Made by a program: the position numbers and the translations under genes. This document shows positions 59,440 to 64,000 of a stretch of DNA of 64,000 nt, piece after piece (within the stretch, counting starts at the first letter, position 1; each line of letters starts with the position of its first letter). The stretch covers positions 186,001 through 250,000 of the forward strand of contig NZ_SUKC01000003.1 in the NCBI RefSeq assembly GCF_005047635.1, read 5' to 3'. This stretch comes from Arthrobacter sp. CAU 1506 (lineage in GTDB: Bacteria > Actinomycetota > Actinomycetes > Actinomycetales > Micrococcaceae). The notes under the pieces were generated by a model that ran no database searches, had not been told where the DNA came from, and saw only the letters and a list, made by a program, of their open reading frames with translations.

Positions 59440-60582
59440 TTAGACCTTCACCAGAGCCGGCGCCTCATCGGCGGCGCTGTTGCGCGAGTCGAGGTAGCGC
59501 TCGATGCTGACCGGGCAGTTGCCAAGGCCGCTGCCCTGCCCTCGACGGCGGAAGTTGATGACCTGGCCGGTTCTCCCGCAGCCGCAGGTGCCGGATTCCA
59601 CGTTGCCCACGTCGTCGGTGAGGAGGAAACCGGGGTAGCTGGTGTTGAGCGCGTCCAGTATGGCAATGGTGCCAGTGTCCCCCGAAGGGAGCTCCTTGCC
59701 GACCTGTCCAGGGTCGCGGATGGAAATGTAGCACCAGGGCGGGACGTGTTTGCGATGCAGGTGGCATTCGACGGCGAGCATGTTCGACTCGATCATGCCG
59801 TACATGTCGCGCACGTTCGCCGGACGCACACCGAGCAGGTCGTGGCACCGGTCCCGGAAGCCCTCCTCCGGGATGGCCTCGGCCGTATGCCGCTTCCAGC
59901 CCCCGAGCGTGATGATCATGCTGTAAGGGTCCAAGCGCACATTGACTTTCTCCTGCTCGAGGAAGCGGAGGAGCCGGTTGATCAGGAACGGCGGACCGAC
60001 GATGTGCCGGGTCATGTGACCCTTCCACCGGCGCAGGTGCTCCATGGCCTCCCTGGCGTCGAACGCCTGATCGTCAACGAGGTAGGCGTGGTGGTCGAAG
60101 ACGCTGTTCAGGATGTTGAAGTCCTTGAGCAGGCCCATTTCCGAGGCTTCGGAGTCCGTAGGGTTCAAGAACAGGCCCGCGCCGCCGGACAAGTTGAAGA
60201 ATTCCCGATAGGTCCCGATGAGGCCAACCAGCGCGCGGGTCATCGTCTCGCTGTTGCGGCGGGCGACGGACTGGATACCGTGGGTTCCGCTGGAGCGGGT
60301 CTCGGTCTCGACGTCGGCCAGAGAGCAGGTGAGCAGCACTTGGGCGTCGGGGCGTTTGAACATGCTGACTGGCAACAGGGGCAGTTCCTGCAGGTCGCCG
60401 ATGTCGTTGATCGCGGCGGGATCGACTCCCAGCGCGTCGCACTGGGCACGATAGAAGCCGTTTTTGGCCTGATGGTAGATCGCGGCGTCCCGCAGGACGT
60501 CCGTAACCGATTGTGCCCAGTCATCAGGGGACTGGACGTGTGCTTGGGACACATTCCCCAGCATCTGCGCTAACGAGAGCAT
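59440..60582 (-). CDS. LuxE-like acyl-protein synthetase / PaaK-like adenylate-forming enzyme
   Basis: The 380-residue protein resembles the LuxE/PaaK branch of adenylate-forming enzymes: 'VSMFKRP' near the N-terminus, 'TETRSSGTHGIQS' (the T-S-G-T-x-G AMP-binding loop, about 93-105), 'DMYGMIESNML' (A5-like), and the C-terminal Cys cluster 'VESGTCGCGRTGQVINFRRRGQG'. In bioluminescence LuxE activates fatty acids and holds the acyl group on a Cys; no LuxC-type reductase is visible here. As the last gene of the NRPS cluster it probably activates or transfers an acyl unit. 51 bases after sbnB. Confidence 0.82.
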   Translation of the reverse strand: MLSLAQMLGNVSQAHVQSPDDWAQSVTDVLRDAAIYHQAKNGFYRAQCDALGVDPAAINDIGDLQELPLLPVSMFKRPDAQVLLTCSLADVETETRSSGTHGIQSVARRNSETMTRALVGLIGTYREFFNLSGGAGLFLNPTDSEASEMGLLKDFNILNSVFDHHAYLVDDQAFDAREAMEHLRRWKGHMTRHIVGPPFLINRLLRFLEQEKVNVRLDPYSMIITLGGWKRHTAEAIPEEGFRDRCHDLLGVRPANVRDMYGMIESNMLAVECHLHRKHVPPWCYISIRDPGQVGKELPSGDTGTIAILDALNTSYPGFLLTDDVGNVESGTCGCGRTGQVINFRRRGQGSGLGNCPVSIERYLDSRNSAADEAPALVKV

Positions 60583-60633
60583 TGTGTCACTTCCTCGGTG
60601 GGTGCGATTCGATAAACGTGGTGGGCCGCCGGG

Positions 60634-61701
60634 TCAGCCGTACCTACGCAGTTCGGAAAAGAAGTCGTCGACCACTCGGAGCTGCCCGCTGCCGGCAAGT
60701 TCGTCGTAGACGTACTTGCCCACCGCCAGGTCCAGCACGCCCAACCCGAACGGAGAGAACACCACGGGACGGTCGTCCGGCAGCGAGACCCTTCCCTCCA
60801 TGACATCGGCCAACGTTCCGTCCACGAAATCCCGGTTGCCGACCGCCTGCTCCGCGAGGTGGGCCGACGTCCCGGCCTTGAGGCAATGATCCACGTCGTC
60901 GAGGATGTTGGTCGACGCCAGCAGGATCTCCGGGGCCAGATCACGCAGGGATACGTGAAGCACCAGCGGATTGTGCGCGAACCACGTGGTGTCGTGCACG
61001 TGCGGCTCCCCGGCCACAGTGGCGAACACGATCAGGTCGCTGTTGCTGATCAGCTGTTCGGGGCCCTCATGCACGGTCACCCGGGCCTGGGTGCCGCTGC
61101 GCTCCAGATACCCTTTGAAACCCTCCGCGCTTTCGCCCAAGAGGTCGAACACCCCGATCTCGTCGAAGGACCAGTCGGTCGCGTTCAGGAAGGTGTGGAT
61201 GTAGCGGGCGATGAGGCCGACGCCGAAGAAGCCGATGCGGCGGGGGCGCCCGCGTCCCCGGCTGAGCCAGTCCGCAGCGGCGGCAGCCGAAGCAGCCGTC
61301 CTGGAGGCGCTAATGATGGAGCTTTCCATGCATGCGAACGGGTATCCCGTTGCCCGATCGTTCAGGATGAGTACCGCCGAAGCACGTGGAATCCCCGATG
61401 CCACGTTGTCCGGGAAGCTGGAGACCCACTTGATGCCGTCAACCTCCACCTGACCGCCAACCGAGGCGGGCAAGGCGATGATGCGAGAGGTGGGCCGGTC
61501 GGCGAAGCGCAGGAAGTAGGAGGGTGGGTTTACTGAGTCGCCGGCAGCATGCACCCGATAGGTTTGCTCGACCAGTTCGACGACCTGTTTCTCCCGGCCC
61601 TGCAGCACCTGCTGCACCTGGGCGCCTGCAATGACCGCGAAAGACGGCACCGTCTTCGGCTCTGTGGCCGATGCGGCTGGGGGAGTAGCGATATCTGTCA
61701 T
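60634..61701 (-). CDS. sbnB: SbnB-type 2,3-diaminopropionate biosynthesis dehydrogenase
   Basis: The 355-residue protein belongs to the ornithine cyclodeaminase/mu-crystallin family. 'GIKWVSSFPDN' (89-99) and the Rossmann loop 'FFGVGLIARYIHTFL' (158-172) are characteristic. SbnB oxidatively cleaves N-(1-amino-1-carboxyethyl)-glutamate to L-2,3-diaminopropionate and 2-oxoglutarate. The partner SbnA (cysteine-synthase-like) is not in the window and would be expected beyond its right edge. The SbnB assignment over plain OCD rests on the NRPS context and overall similarity. 11 bases after the dioxygenase. Confidence 0.83.
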   Translation of the reverse strand: MTDIATPPAASATEPKTVPSFAVIAGAQVQQVLQGREKQVVELVEQTYRVHAAGDSVNPPSYFLRFADRPTSRIIALPASVGGQVEVDGIKWVSSFPDNVASGIPRASAVLILNDRATGYPFACMESSIISASRTAASAAAAADWLSRGRGRPRRIGFFGVGLIARYIHTFLNATDWSFDEIGVFDLLGESAEGFKGYLERSGTQARVTVHEGPEQLISNSDLIVFATVAGEPHVHDTTWFAHNPLVLHVSLRDLAPEILLASTNILDDVDHCLKAGTSAHLAEQAVGNRDFVDGTLADVMEGRVSLPDDRPVVFSPFGLGVLDLAVGKYVYDELAGSGQLRVVDDFFSELRRYG

Positions 61702-61712
61702 CGTGCACCGTC

Positions 61713-62705
61713 CTAGGTGTGGGTATCAAGATCGAATACGTTGCGCGGCTCGGCCATGCCGACCAGGATCTCCCGCGGTCCCTCGTACGCCTCGCGGCTG
61801 TGGGCCATGCGGATGTTGTCGACCAGCATCAGGTCCCCGGGTTCCCAGGGAGTGCGAAGCGTGTGGGCCTCGTAGATCTCGTTCAGGAGGGCGACGATGT
61901 CCTCGCCAATCGGGTCGCCGTTGCCAAACCGGGTGTTGAACGGCAGACCGTCGGGACCGTAGACGTCCACCAGGTATTCCCGCACCTCGGGAGCGATCGT
62001 CCATTCGTTCAGGAACGCGACCTGATTGAACCAACAGCGTTGGCCGGTCGCCGGATGCCGGACCACGGCAGGGCGCCGTTGCCGGGTGCGCAGCTCCCCG
62101 TCTGGCTGCCACTCGAACTCGATCTCGTGCGCGCGGCAGTAGCTCTCGACGTCGGCGCGGTCGGAGACCCCGAATGCCTCCTCGTAGGTGGCTCCGATGT
62201 CCTCGTTGTAGCTGCGGGCGAGCAGCCACCCCTCGTCTTCGAAGCGCCGAACGATGTCCGGAGGGATGGCGTCGAGCACGGCGCTGGCGTCTGCCACACC
62301 GGTCACCCCACCGACGCTGGGTGCCCGGAGGCAGGCGAAGAGCATCAGTCCGGGGAACTCGAGCGCATAGCTGAGCTCCTGGTGCATGCACATCGGCTGG
62401 TTCGAGGGCCAGGTGAGGGATGAGTACACGCCGTCCAGGTAGGGCTGCCGGGTGGCGAATGCCTCCCGGTCCGGCATGAGGCCGCCTGAGACCAGCCGCT
62501 GGAAGCCCTCGGCCACTTCAGCTGGATCACGCAGGCCCAAGCCGCGGACCAGTACTGCGCCGTGATCATCCACCGCCGCGCGCAGCGCCTCACGGTTCTG
62601 TTCGGCCCACAGCACGGGGTCGTGGCCGTAATCGACGGTGAGCATCGGCGTCCGTCCGGCTTGGCGTTCCACGTCGAACTGGATCCTGGGTGATTGAGAC
62701 GACAT
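61713..62705 (-). CDS. TauD/TfdA-family Fe(II)/2-oxoglutarate dioxygenase
   Basis: The 330-residue oxygenase has a clavaminate-synthase/TauD-like fold. The iron ligands are His108 and Glu110 ('MCMHQELSYA', H-x-E rather than H-x-D) with His302, and Arg311 ('NIRMAHSREAYEGPR') for 2-oxoglutarate. The H-x-E form is common in clavaminate-synthase-like and NRPS-associated members that act on carrier-bound amino acids. Its ATG overlaps the NRPS stop by one base (TGATG). 2-oxoglutarate released by SbnB could serve as co-substrate. Confidence 0.9.
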   Translation of the reverse strand: MSSQSPRIQFDVERQAGRTPMLTVDYGHDPVLWAEQNREALRAAVDDHGAVLVRGLGLRDPAEVAEGFQRLVSGGLMPDREAFATRQPYLDGVYSSLTWPSNQPMCMHQELSYALEFPGLMLFACLRAPSVGGVTGVADASAVLDAIPPDIVRRFEDEGWLLARSYNEDIGATYEEAFGVSDRADVESYCRAHEIEFEWQPDGELRTRQRRPAVVRHPATGQRCWFNQVAFLNEWTIAPEVREYLVDVYGPDGLPFNTRFGNGDPIGEDIVALLNEIYEAHTLRTPWEPGDLMLVDNIRMAHSREAYEGPREILVGMAEPRNVFDLDTHT

Positions 62706-64000
62706 CAGAGGTCCTTTCCTTTCACGGGTAGCGGGTGGGAATGGCCAACCGGTCCTCCCACCGGGGCCGTTGGGTCTGGCTTCGCGGCGGCTCCTGCCGG
62801 CCGCGGGTCGGGCGAGACGGCAGCGTCCGTGAGGGACGAGGCCTCGAGCAAGGTCGCCAGGTCGGACAGGACAGGCGACTGCATGATGTCCTTGATCGAC
62901 ACCGCGCGCTTGAGCAGGACGGCGAGCTTCACCGCGGACAGCGAGGTCCCGCCCAGGGCAAAGAACGAGTCCTGCGCGCTGATCCGACCCGCCGGTAGGC
63001 CGAGCACCGACGCCCATGCCTCGGCGAGCCGCTGCTCGGTGGCCGAGAGGGCCTCCGCCGCGGTACCGGCTTCGGGCACGACCTCCCGAGCCATCCGGGT
63101 CAAGACCTTCCGGTCGATCTTGCCGTTGCCGGTCAGGGGCAGGCTCTTCTGCCACCGATACGCCGACGGAACCATGTAGCCCGGAACCCGCGCGGCCAGC
63201 TCGCTCCGGATTTCATCGACTTCGAGCTGCCCATTGCCTGAGTAGAACGCCACCAGGAACTTCGACTGTCCGGCGCCCTCACCGACGACGACGGCGCCGT
63301 CGCGGACGCCGGGAACCCGCAGCAGCGCGTTCTCGATGTCGCCGATCTCGATCCGGAAACCGGAAATCTTGACTTGGTTGTCCCGCCGGCCCAGATACTC
63401 CAGCTTTCCCTCCGGCGACCAGCGGCCGTAGTCGCCCGCCCGGTAGAGTCGCGCACCGTCCACGTAGGGGTCGGTGGAGTAGGCCAAGGCCGTCCGTTCC
63501 GGATCGTTGATGTAGCCGCGGCCCACGCACACTCCGGAGAAGGCGATCTCGCCCGGTGCTCCGAGCGGCACAAGGCGCTGCCGCTCGTCGAGGATGTGGA
63601 TCCTGACGTTGGAAATCGGCGGACCCAGTGGCACAGAACTGCCCGCTGGCGCTGCGCTCATGACCTCGTGGTTCGTGTCGTCCGAGGTCTCCGTGAGTCC
63701 GTAAGCGTTGACCAGCTTGACGTCCGGCATCACGTCGAACCAGCGGCGGACCAGTTCACGTTTCAGGGCCTCCCCGGTCGCCGAGACGCAGCGGAGGTTC
63801 GGCAGGGCGCGGGGGTTGCCGGCCAAGTAGGCCACCACGGCGTCCAAATACGAGGGAACGACCTGGAAGACCGCGACCGCGCCCCGTTCCACCGTGTCGA
63901 TGAACCGCTCGACGTCGAGGATGCGGTCCTGCGCGACAATGTGCGTGCGACCGCCGACGAGCAGTGCCGAGACCAGTTGCCACAGCGAGATGTCGAAACA
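62705..64000 (-). CDS. NRPS adenylation-carrier module, C-terminal part (5' end outside window)
   Basis: 431 residues are visible. The adenylation domain starts in the A4 region ('FDISLWQ') and shows A5 'NAYGLTETSDD', A6 'VGRGYINDPERT', A7 'LYRAGDYGRW', A8 'GRRDNQVKISGFRIEIGDIE' and A10 'GNGKIDRKVL' with the catalytic Lys. A carrier domain follows with 'FFALGGTSLSAVKL', its Ser carrying phosphopantetheine. After it comes a ~50-residue Pro/Ala-rich tail; no thioesterase or condensation domain follows. It is translationally coupled to the dioxygenase. Confidence 0.92.
   Translation of the reverse strand, partial: CFDISLWQLVSALLVGGRTHIVAQDRILDVERFIDTVERGAVAVFQVVPSYLDAVVAYLAGNPRALPNLRCVSATGEALKRELVRRWFDVMPDVKLVNAYGLTETSDDTNHEVMSAAPAGSSVPLGPPISNVRIHILDERQRLVPLGAPGEIAFSGVCVGRGYINDPERTALAYSTDPYVDGARLYRAGDYGRWSPEGKLEYLGRRDNQVKISGFRIEIGDIENALLRVPGVRDGAVVVGEGAGQSKFLVAFYSGNGQLEVDEIRSELAARVPGYMVPSAYRWQKSLPLTGNGKIDRKVLTRMAREVVPEAGTAAEALSATEQRLAEAWASVLGLPAGRISAQDSFFALGGTSLSAVKLAVLLKRAVSIKDIMQSPVLSDLATLLEASSLTDAAVSPDPRPAGAAAKPDPTAPVGGPVGHSHPLPVKGKDL

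What the first reader, a model, noticed from the sequence alone, without database searches (positions are those of the whole stretch)
59440..64000. Edge of a diaminopropionate NRPS cluster with dapdiamide-like enzyme logic
Four coupled minus-strand genes encode an adenylation-carrier NRPS, an Fe(II)/2-oxoglutarate dioxygenase, an SbnB-type enzyme that would form L-2,3-diaminopropionate, and a LuxE-like acyl-activating enzyme. In dapdiamide biosynthesis (Pantoea) an SbnA/SbnB-like pair makes diaminopropionate, an NRPS module (DdaD) holds an acylated diaminopropionate, and the dioxygenase DdaC epoxidises it on the carrier. The gene set here reproduces that logic, but the visible NRPS lacks a thioesterase and a LuxE-like enzyme replaces the amide ligases. 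Such a pathway would be new to Micrococcaceae as far as I know. What is seen: the domains and coupling. What is inferred: substrate and product.
Basis: partly seen in the sequence, partly recalled or inferred. Interest (0 to 1): 0.85.

Follow-up and report, generated by a model that had tools for sequence, protein, structure and literature searches.

The report
Split poly-diaminopropionate synthase with oxidase
This soil bacterium carries a compact, widely conserved gene set that most likely makes a positively charged polymer from the rare amino acid diaminopropionate, with a polymer-making enzyme split in two and an oxygenase that probably edits the building block, a combination I found no description of.

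Summary
The four genes are real and correctly named. Beyond the window edge the operon continues with a true SbnA and a 1041-aa membrane protein with three carrier domains and the Pls/PosA terminal domain, the polymerase of polylysine and poly-diaminopropionate synthetases. So this is not a dapdiamide-type pathway but a split homopoly(amino acid) synthase: the adenylation domain sits on a separate A-carrier protein that must load the polymerase in trans. Its pocket code DIWQSTADDK is unchanged in 49 of 51 loci (A domains 50-100% identical), and 48 of 51 carry diaminopropionate-making genes, four of them by a different route, so the substrate is very probably L-diaminopropionate. A TauD dioxygenase accompanies it in 45 of 51, including 6 of 8 loci without the polymerase, so it probably acts on carrier-bound diaminopropionate; yet two similar TauDs stand beside other A domains. 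Decayed fused adenylation domains in Pseudonocardia relatives suggest how the split arose. LuxE was found only in Micrococcaceae-type loci. Product, dioxygenase reaction and trans loading are inferred. New variant of a known kind.

The parts
62705..64000 (-). Trans A-carrier protein, 3' part (the gene runs off the window; whole gene 62705-65320 extrapolated = L002:4706-7321, 871 aa): part of a condensation domain, adenylation domain with code DIWQSTADDK, one carrier domain. Upstream of it, outside the window, lie the polymerase (L002:7318-10443, three carriers + Pls/PosA terminal domain) and sbnA (L002:10440-11513).
61713..62705 (-). TauD/TfdA-type Fe(II)/2-oxoglutarate dioxygenase, 330 aa, HxE...H triad (H109, E111, H303 in the numbering of alignment A1)
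   Evidence: (H109, E111 and H303 invariant in 22 of 22 aligned sequences)
60634..61701 (-). SbnB, second enzyme of L-2,3-diaminopropionate synthesis
   Evidence: TIGR03944 416.3 bits, cut-off 326.9
59440..60582 (-). LuxE-like acyl-activating enzyme; accessory, found only in Micrococcaceae-type loci

Best explanation
A six-gene operon for a homopoly(amino acid) of L-2,3-diaminopropionate (Dap), built by a split Pls/PosA-type synthase. Steps: (1) SbnA and SbnB make L-Dap. (2) The separate A-carrier protein adenylates L-Dap and loads its own carrier. (3) The TauD dioxygenase oxidises Dap while it is carrier-bound (the carbon attacked and the product are unknown). (4) The aminoacyl group passes to the tandem carriers of the membrane polymerase, perhaps helped by the partial condensation domain, much as SyrB1 or ramoplanin-type free A-T modules feed another protein. 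(5) The three beta-helix domains of the polymerase join monomers through the side-chain amine, as proposed for polylysine synthetase, and the product leaves at the membrane. LuxE adds an optional, Micrococcaceae-only acyl step. Shown by sequence: gene content, domain make-up, the invariant pocket, co-occurrence across genera, an A-less polymerase. Inferred: Dap as substrate (strong), trans loading (strong), polymer as product (moderate to strong), oxidation on the carrier before polymerisation (moderate), export and LuxE role (weak).
For: Polymerase: TIGR02353 645 bits, cut-off 423; AlphaFold model of the L004 homologue (89% identical), pLDDT 87.4, shows three beta-helix domains with membrane helices between them; nearest solved folds are hexapeptide acyltransferases. 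No adenylation domain in that protein; the operon's only NRPS-type A domain is on the free A-carrier protein. In this genus 10 of 10 genomes have the A-carrier protein, one match each at E <= 1e-150, while 4 of 10 (G000, G005, G006, G009) have two or three polymerases 73-100% identical to that of L004: one loader may serve several. Pocket DIWQSTADDK in 49 of 51 loci (one more is cut short, one reads DIWQATCDDK); Dap-making genes in 48 of 51, against 1 of the 21 tabulated loci with a polymerase 40% or more identical but no such A domain. In the 21 loci outside the family that were found with the A-carrier protein as query, so not selected for the polymerase: code 20, Dap genes 19, TauD 19, polymerase 14 of 21. 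In four of the 48 (L097, L101, L146, L147) the Dap genes are a PLP enzyme + argininosuccinate-lyase-like + kinase set instead of SbnA/SbnB, an independent link to Dap if that set makes Dap. TauD is within about 2.5 kb of the A domain in 6 of 8 loci without the polymerase (L097, L141, L143, L144, L145, L147). HxE...H kept in 22 of 22. Decayed cis adenylation domains in L022 and L025 beside an intact trans one. Gene order and overlaps.
Against: No member has been tested: DIWQSTADDK is in no held paper and its link to Dap is by association. Free Dap hydroxylated at either carbon would be an unstable hemiaminal (general chemistry), so simple on-carrier hydroxylation is awkward; desaturation, or action after acylation, is possible. 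Two Streptomyces plasmids (L102, L106) have TauDs 56% and 51% identical to this one beside A domains that read DVWHVSYVDK, with no Dap genes in the 19 kb read, so this TauD group is not tied to Dap alone. TauD also sits beside polymerases with no trans A-carrier protein in the stretch read (fused L100, L103; L104 with a separate degenerate A-domain gene). TauD is missing from L031, although that stretch is long enough, and from L146; L101 has only a 35% relative. The quick tree does not make the split polymerases one clade. No exporter or resistance gene recurs around the cluster. Loci L004-L048 were found with the polymerase as query, so its presence there is by construction.
Confidence: 0.74

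Rival explanations
1. Ordinary beta-poly-L-Dap, as in Streptomyces albulus PD-1, made by a merely split synthetase; the dioxygenase acts on the finished chain (for example cutting or capping it, so setting length) or on something else.
For: Same precursor and same polymerase domain as the S. albulus enzyme (PMC4668381, passages and section 7 read). TauD next to polymerases without a trans A-carrier protein in the stretch read (L100, L103, L104). Two similar TauDs beside non-Dap-type A domains (L102, L106). Oxidation beside an acylated nitrogen is chemically easier than on free Dap (general chemistry).
Against: TauD follows the A-carrier protein into 6 of 8 loci without the polymerase. The S. 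albulus paper's main text has no occurrence of 'dioxygenase'. The A domain differs wholly from the fused ones.
Confidence: 0.31
2. [quoted passage not shown] extra carriers and the trans loader would place side residues.
For: Such a polymer exists (named in PMC9606270, passages). The multi-carrier polymerase could hold more than one donor.
Against: A comb polymer needs no dioxygenase; the cited paper is not held, so no gene link could be checked.
Confidence: 0.12
3. Dapdiamide-like small antibiotic: acylated Dap epoxidised on the carrier by a DdaC-type enzyme.
For: SbnA, SbnB, dioxygenase and A-carrier NRPS are also the first four genes of the dapdiamide locus of Pantoea vagans.
Against: No fumarate ligase or ATP-grasp enzyme among the genes scanned; NRPS pocket DSEDIGVINK and 31% identity, dioxygenase 31%; the polymerase would be unexplained.
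Confidence: 0.04
4. A heteropolymer or capped oligomer: the A-carrier protein supplies (oxidised) Dap while another activating enzyme (LuxE here) supplies an acyl group for one end or for alternate units.
For: A LuxE-type activating enzyme lies downstream in 11 of 15 Micrococcaceae-type loci (about 3.1 kb away in L014); its C-terminal region is well conserved.
Against: LuxE was not found in 36 of 36 other loci nor in Kocuria L009, so the core chemistry does not need it.
Confidence: 0.15

Closest known systems
Poly(L-diaminopropionic acid) synthetase and NjxA/NjxB of Streptomyces albulus PD-1 (PMC4668381)
   Same: L-Dap from a cysteine-synthase-like and an ornithine-cyclodeaminase-like enzyme; Pls-type terminal domain with membrane helices around three soluble domains; no condensation or thioesterase domain.
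   Different: There A, carrier and polymerase are one protein and the Dap genes are not near it. Here A is a separate protein with another pocket and part of a condensation domain, carriers are multiplied, Dap genes are in the operon, and a dioxygenase is added.
Pls and PosA (epsilon-polylysine, delta-polyornithine synthetases; PMC10522769)
   Same: Polymerase part belongs to the same curated family (TIGR02353).
   Different: PosA paper: Asp217 and Glu221 of the pocket are well conserved, Glu binding the side-chain amine; here the corresponding position is Trp.
Streptothricin ORF19 with carrier ORF18 (passage in PMC9606270)
   Same: A free adenylation domain works with a separate carrier to make an isopeptide-linked chain.
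   Different: ORF19 itself lengthens a beta-lysine chain; here a Pls-type membrane polymerase is present.
Dapdiamide cluster of Pantoea (dda; P. vagans pPag2, L098)
   Same: SbnA, SbnB, TauD-type dioxygenase, free A-carrier NRPS.
   Different: Ligases, other A-domain pocket, no polymerase found in the locus.
SyrB1/SyrB2 and ramoplanin/enduracidin free A-T modules (review PMC8949500, section 14 read)
   Same: Free A-carrier protein acting in trans; SyrB2 edits the residue on SyrB1 (that SyrB2 is an iron/2-oxoglutarate enzyme is recalled); the ramoplanin/enduracidin modules have a ~300-aa N-terminal extension, needed for trans action in ramoplanin.
   Different: Here the triad keeps the carboxylate (HxE), so it is not a SyrB2-type halogenase, and the receiver is a polymerase. 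The extension here weakly matches a condensation domain.
Albicidin-type repair of a dead A domain in trans (same review)
   Same: A non-functional cis A domain complemented by a free A-T protein, as L022 and L025 suggest.
   Different: Different substrate, extension and receiver.

Membership tests
Pls/PosA family homopoly(amino acid) synthetase | Terminal domain TIGR02353 above cut-off | tested here: met
   645.1 bits against 423.1
Pls/PosA family homopoly(amino acid) synthetase | Membrane helices around three tandem soluble domains | tested here: met
   model and hydropathy of the L004 homologue, 89% identical
Pls/PosA family homopoly(amino acid) synthetase | Adenylation, carrier and terminal domain in one protein | tested here: not met
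   no A domain in the polymerase; A is a separate gene
Pls/PosA family homopoly(amino acid) synthetase | Glu at the third code position of the A domain | tested here: not met
   Trp in 51 of 51 trans-type A domains; Glu in most fused ones
Pls/PosA family homopoly(amino acid) synthetase | Makes an isopeptide-linked polymer | not testable with these tools
   needs product analysis
SbnA/SbnB diaminopropionate pathway | Both equivalog models above cut-off, in one operon | tested here: met
   393.3 / 349.95 and 416.3 / 326.9 bits
SbnA/SbnB diaminopropionate pathway | Makes L-Dap (from phosphoserine and glutamate, or serine and ornithine) | not testable with these tools
   enzyme assay needed; the S. 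albulus paper reports other substrates than S. aureus
Dapdiamide (dda) pathway | Fumarate-Dap ligase DdaG and an ATP-grasp ligase | tested here: not met
   none among the genes scanned, window 58290 to L002:14488
Dapdiamide (dda) pathway | DdaD-type A domain and DdaC-type dioxygenase | tested here: not met
   31% identity each to the P. vagans genes in those places; code DSEDIGVINK against DIWQSTADDK
SyrB1/SyrB2-type trans tailoring | Free A-carrier protein next to an Fe/2OG-type enzyme | tested here: met
SyrB1/SyrB2-type trans tailoring | Halogenase triad (carboxylate replaced by Ala/Gly; recalled) | tested here: not met
   E111 in 22 of 22
LuxE fatty acid-protein ligase | NCBIfam LuxE equivalog score | tested here: not met
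   146.5 bits against cut-off 550; only the Pfam family PF04443 is met

The most novel reading that the evidence does not exclude
A Dap-oxidation cassette (Dap synthase + trans A-carrier protein + TauD) edits L-Dap on a carrier and feeds a membrane polymerase whose own A domain has decayed or gone, giving a homopoly(amino acid) built from an oxidised monomer, which to my knowledge would be the first; the same cassette is plugged into other NRPS or hybrid lines elsewhere, and one loader serves several polymerases per cell.
Probability: 0.42. Interest if true: 0.78.

Novelty: new variant of a known kind. Interest (0 to 1): 0.64.

Why it matters
The Pls-type homopoly(amino acid) synthetases described in the passages read carry their own adenylation domain. 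A split one, with a free loader, a row of carriers and an oxygenase, would show how iterative polymer synthesis can be fed by an external, pre-edited monomer. That makes it directly testable which part sets substrate and chain length, and gives a handle for making new polycations. The nearly invariant code DIWQSTADDK offers a genome-mining marker for Dap and points to other clusters that may hold an oxidised Dap unit. It also sharpens the generic 'polylysine-like' label that genome papers put on clusters of Micrococcaceae.

Tried and rejected
Dapdiamide pathway: rejected on gene content, pocket and identity. Halogenase: rejected, triad carboxylate kept. Catabolic ornithine cyclodeaminase for the SbnB gene: rejected. 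LuxE as essential replacement ligase: rejected. Fold and sequence search of the dioxygenase for a functional relative: nearest solved structure is the Arabidopsis protein At3g21360, whose listing names no function beyond 'clavaminate synthase-like'. Promoter/terminator scan: no promoter-like site; 7 terminator-like sites against 4.7 (sd 2.2) in shuffles. Literature search for the code: no hit. Searches for the split architecture: no listed title and no passage read describes it; most listed papers were seen as listings only. The Takehara 2021 comb-polymer paper is not held, so I cannot say what it reports. PMC5472815 (isosulfazecin): passages only, no occurrence of 'diaminopropion'. The reading of the PLP/lyase/kinase set as a second Dap route rests on family membership, record annotation ('kinase') and recall of alanosine and sulfazecin work, not on a paper seen here. 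Search for further conserved genes around 32 split loci with naive ORF calling: apart from frames that overlap core genes (checked in L002), the widest family is the M28 peptidase (6 loci); one family in 5 loci weakly resembles an acetyltransferase. In the tree I labelled L043 'fused'; one search shows its polymerase has no A domain, so that label is wrong and adds to the count of changes. A by-eye code that I wrote in a note (DIWQVAADDK) was corrected by alignment to DIWQSTADDK. On rechecking I had left out L102 and L106 (TauD beside non-Dap-type A domains); adding them I lowered the novel case from 0.45 to 0.42 and raised the plain poly-Dap rival from 0.30 to 0.31.
Full report
WHAT IS THERE. 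The window is G000:C23:186001-250000, and the contig goes on for 38.9 kb (length 288,901). Reading on shows an operon of six minus-strand genes, in transcription order sbnA, polymerase, A-carrier protein, tauD, sbnB, luxE. In extrapolated window coordinates sbnA is 68439-69512, the polymerase 65317-68442 and the A-carrier gene 62705-65320. The junctions are GTGA and ATGA 4-nt overlaps, a TGATG 1-nt overlap, then gaps of 11 and 51 nt. Upstream of sbnA lie a methyltransferase and a UPF0029 protein and genes that I name coaE and uvrB by recognising their sequence; downstream is an M28 peptidase. The reported observation is confirmed at its coordinates.

THE POLYMERASE. The 1041-aa protein has three carrier domains (PF00550, three stretches), 45 to 61 of 75 residues identical between pairs, followed by the complete NCBIfam domain TIGR02353, 'Pls/PosA family non-ribosomal peptide synthetase', at 645 bits against a cut-off of 423. 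An AlphaFold model of its homologue in A. hankyongi (L004, 89% identical), made on an alignment of 29 sequences (A2), has mean pLDDT 87.4 and a secondary structure of three beta-helix stretches separated by long helices. Hydropathy puts about six membrane helices at those places, which fits published descriptions of Pls and PDAP synthetase (six and seven membrane segments around three soluble domains; passages of PMC4668381). The nearest solved folds are hexapeptide acyltransferases, at weak E-values (best 1.7e-4). The protein has no adenylation domain.

THE LOADER. The A-carrier protein starts at an ATG that overlaps the polymerase stop codon and has 871 aa. Its N-terminal ~240 residues match only a later part of the condensation-domain profile, below cut-off (positions 218-275 of 456 here, 195-280 in L023); the catalytic motif lies earlier in such domains (recalled), so it is probably a non-catalytic remnant. 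Aligned to GrsA, its code is DIWQSTADDK. Fused homopolymer synthetases among my loci mostly read D(F/A)E...K, and the PosA paper stresses the conserved Glu. The pocket is therefore a different solution, with two acidic residues at positions 330 and 331, plausible for a short diamino acid (inference).

TAKING THE SET ACROSS GENOMES. One scan of named genomes with the polymerase gave 45 loci. A search with the A-carrier protein over 394 genomes of the class gave 21 genomes (24 places) at E <= 1e-120. I tabulated 82 loci: L002, L004-L048, L089-L098, L100-L107 and L131-L148. L001, L003, L099 and the short pieces L049-L088 and L108-L130 were left out (duplicates, flanks, off topic, or too short to show neighbours). 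Fifty-one loci hold a trans-type A domain (44% identity or more, aligned over at least 250 residues; Pseudonocardia L034, with a 200-residue fragment, falls below this limit). Of the 51: code identical in 49 (L013 lacks only the last residue), at A-domain identities from 50 to 100%; exceptions are Kitasatospora L097, DIWQATCDDK, and L044, cut after DIWQ. Dap-making genes in 48; exceptions L012 and L013, on contigs of 5.9 and 4.7 kb, and L143. TauD (44% or more) in 45; exceptions L013, L018 and L044 (stretch ends soon after or within the A domain), L031, L101, L146. Polymerase in 43. LuxE in 11, all within the 15 Micrococcaceae-type loci (not found in Kocuria L009 and the short L012, L013, L094; about 3.1 kb from sbnB in L014) and in none of the 36 others. 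Among 21 tabulated loci with a polymerase domain 40% or more identical but no trans-type A domain, Dap genes (same thresholds) occur in 1 (L015, a rearranged Arthrobacter ipis locus) and TauD in 3 (L100, L103, L104); L104 also has an SbnA-like gene at 35%, below my threshold, and some of the 21 lie on short contigs (L042, L045, L047). Fisher's exact test for Dap genes, 48/51 against 1/21, gives p about 1e-13; the loci are related by descent and unequal in length, so this overstates the evidence.

THE LESS BIASED SAMPLE. Loci L004-L048 were found by the polymerase, so its presence there is by construction. The odd one, L148, reads DIWELTADDK and lacks all partners. In L097, L101, L146 and L147 the Dap genes are not SbnA/SbnB but a cysteine-synthase-like PLP enzyme (below the SbnA cut-off in the two tested), an argininosuccinate-lyase-like protein and an annotated or similar kinase, with an ATP-grasp protein or fusion. 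I read this as a second route to Dap by recall of alanosine and sulfazecin work; no paper seen here proves it. That the same pocket goes with two routes to one amino acid would be the best available argument that the substrate is L-Dap.

THE DIOXYGENASE. It keeps H109, E111 and H303 in 22 of 22 aligned sequences, so it looks like an oxygenase and not a SyrB2-type halogenase. It lies within about 2.5 kb of the A domain in 6 of the 8 loci that lack the polymerase (L097, L141, L143, L144, L145, L147). Scanned neighbours there include a two-module NRPS (L141), an A-KR-carrier protein (L144), ketosynthases and an MMPL transporter (L145), but in L143 a phosphoglycerate dehydrogenase and an ABC1 kinase. 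This points to the carrier-bound amino acid as substrate. Against it: TauDs 56% and 51% identical to this one (L102, L106) stand beside A domains reading DVWHVSYVDK with no Dap genes in the 19 kb read, and TauD sits beside polymerases on Pseudonocardia plasmids with no trans A-carrier protein in the stretches read (L100, L103, L104, and L149, which has the same proteins as L104). In L100, L103 and L104 the A domain looks decayed (motifs broken), so a loader may be elsewhere. Which atom is oxidised is open: a free amine on a hydroxylated carbon would be unstable, so desaturation, or oxidation after acylation, must be considered. The nearest solved structure gives no functional lead.

HOW THE SPLIT MAY HAVE ARISEN. 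In L025 the polymerase still carries a stump of a fused A domain that stops after the YGPTE motif, upstream of an intact trans A-carrier protein. In L022 a second, fused synthetase with a shortened A domain lies beside the split set. In a quick tree of 41 polymerase domains the label 'split' needs 6 changes, at least 2 forced by well-supported branches (4 changes if the A-less orphans count as split; L043 was mislabelled 'fused'), so one origin is not shown. Carrier number before the terminal domain, by motif, is 2-4 in 12 Micrococcaceae loci with a complete gene, mostly 2 in Geodermatophilaceae (1 in L028, up to 4 motif hits in L018), 1 in Pseudonocardia and in L090-L092, and 0-1 in fused forms; the plasmid forms L100 and L103, not in that count, match the three-carrier stretch.

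IN THIS LINEAGE. All 10 genomes held for the genus have the A-carrier protein, one match each, and the polymerase. In the family it is in 18 of 295 genomes (10 of the genus, 8 of the 285 others). The M28 gene flanks the cluster at 76-78% identity in L004, L008 and L011, and coaE/uvrB lie near it in L015 and L017, so the site is shared in part of Arthrobacter, which fits vertical inheritance there. The own genome has a second, A-less polymerase with two carriers on another contig (L089:8083-10992) and no second A-carrier protein. Extra copies also exist in G005, G006 and G009. This is indirect support for loading in trans. Around 32 split loci no other gene family recurs in more than 6 loci, apart from frames overlapping core genes (naive ORF calling), so no dedicated exporter or resistance gene is evident.

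MECHANISM. Best reading: SbnA/SbnB make L-Dap; the free A-carrier protein activates and holds it; TauD oxidises it there; the residue moves to the tandem carriers, and the three beta-helix domains polymerise it through the side-chain amine at the membrane. Precedent for each idea: trans A-T modules with an editing enzyme (SyrB1/SyrB2), an N-terminal extension needed for trans loading (ramoplanin), and repair of a dead A domain in trans (albicidin), all from section 14 of the review PMC8949500. My odds: Dap about 0.85, trans loading 0.8, polymer 0.75, oxidation before polymerisation 0.5.

KNOWN OR NEW. The terminal domain is a member of a known family. The synthase as a whole fails two features of that family that I tested (one protein; Glu in the pocket), so I file it as a new variant. 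My searches of the held library listed no title, and the passages read held no description, of a split form. Papers seen: PMC4668381 (outline, passages, section 7), PMC10522769 (passages, sections 10 and 11), PMC9606270 (passages), PMC8949500 (passages, section 14), PMC5472815, PMC12025171, PMC11078813 and PMC8117764 (passages); the other listed papers as listings only. Subscription papers are mostly not held, so novelty is provisional. Genome papers already flag 'NAPAA' clusters in Micrococcaceae, so part of this set has probably been seen by software as polylysine-like.

Noticed in passing
L089:8083-10992 (own genome, G000:C40): Orphan second polymerase, two carriers + Pls/PosA terminal domain, 969 aa, with no A domain, SbnA, SbnB or TauD match in the 19 kb read.
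   Followed up: partly
L094 (G017:C14, same family): Pieces of two tandem copies of polymerase and A-carrier protein with one TauD on a 7.7-kb contig, and an SbnB fragment between: tandem duplication or rearrangement.
   Followed up: no
L015 (Arthrobacter ipis): Rearranged locus: two polymerase starts, two SbnA pieces and a partial LuxE; no A-carrier protein, TauD or SbnB match.
   Followed up: no
L100, L103, L104, L149 (Pseudonocardia plasmids): Pls/PosA synthetase with a decayed-looking A domain (checked in L100, L103, L104), directly followed by a TauD 50-54% identical to the window's; L104 and L149 (same proteins) also have a cysteine-synthase-like gene.
   Followed up: partly
L102, L106 (Streptomyces plasmids): TauD 56% and 51% identical to the window's beside two A domains reading DVWHVSYVDK and DVRHFALMAK, no Dap genes found nearby.
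   Followed up: partly
L097, L101, L141, L143, L144, L145, L146, L147: Trans-type A-carrier proteins without the polymerase; neighbours of L141, L144, L145 are NRPS or polyketide genes, L143 has a phosphoglycerate dehydrogenase. May be clusters holding a Dap or oxidised-Dap unit.
   Followed up: partly
L099 (Streptomyces sp. NBC_01592 plasmid): SbnB 70% identical to the window's near anthranilate synthase, a tryptophan halogenase and an SbnA; one of about 18 Streptomyces plasmid records with SbnB near 70%, only this one's neighbours were read.
   Followed up: no
   Followed up: no
L038, L042 (Nitrosocosmicus / Nitrososphaerales records): Pls/PosA terminal domains about 41% identical in archaeal records.
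   Followed up: no
L013: Contig binned as a Streptomyces MAG but with an A domain 86% identical to the window's, perhaps a mis-binned Micrococcaceae contig.
   Followed up: no
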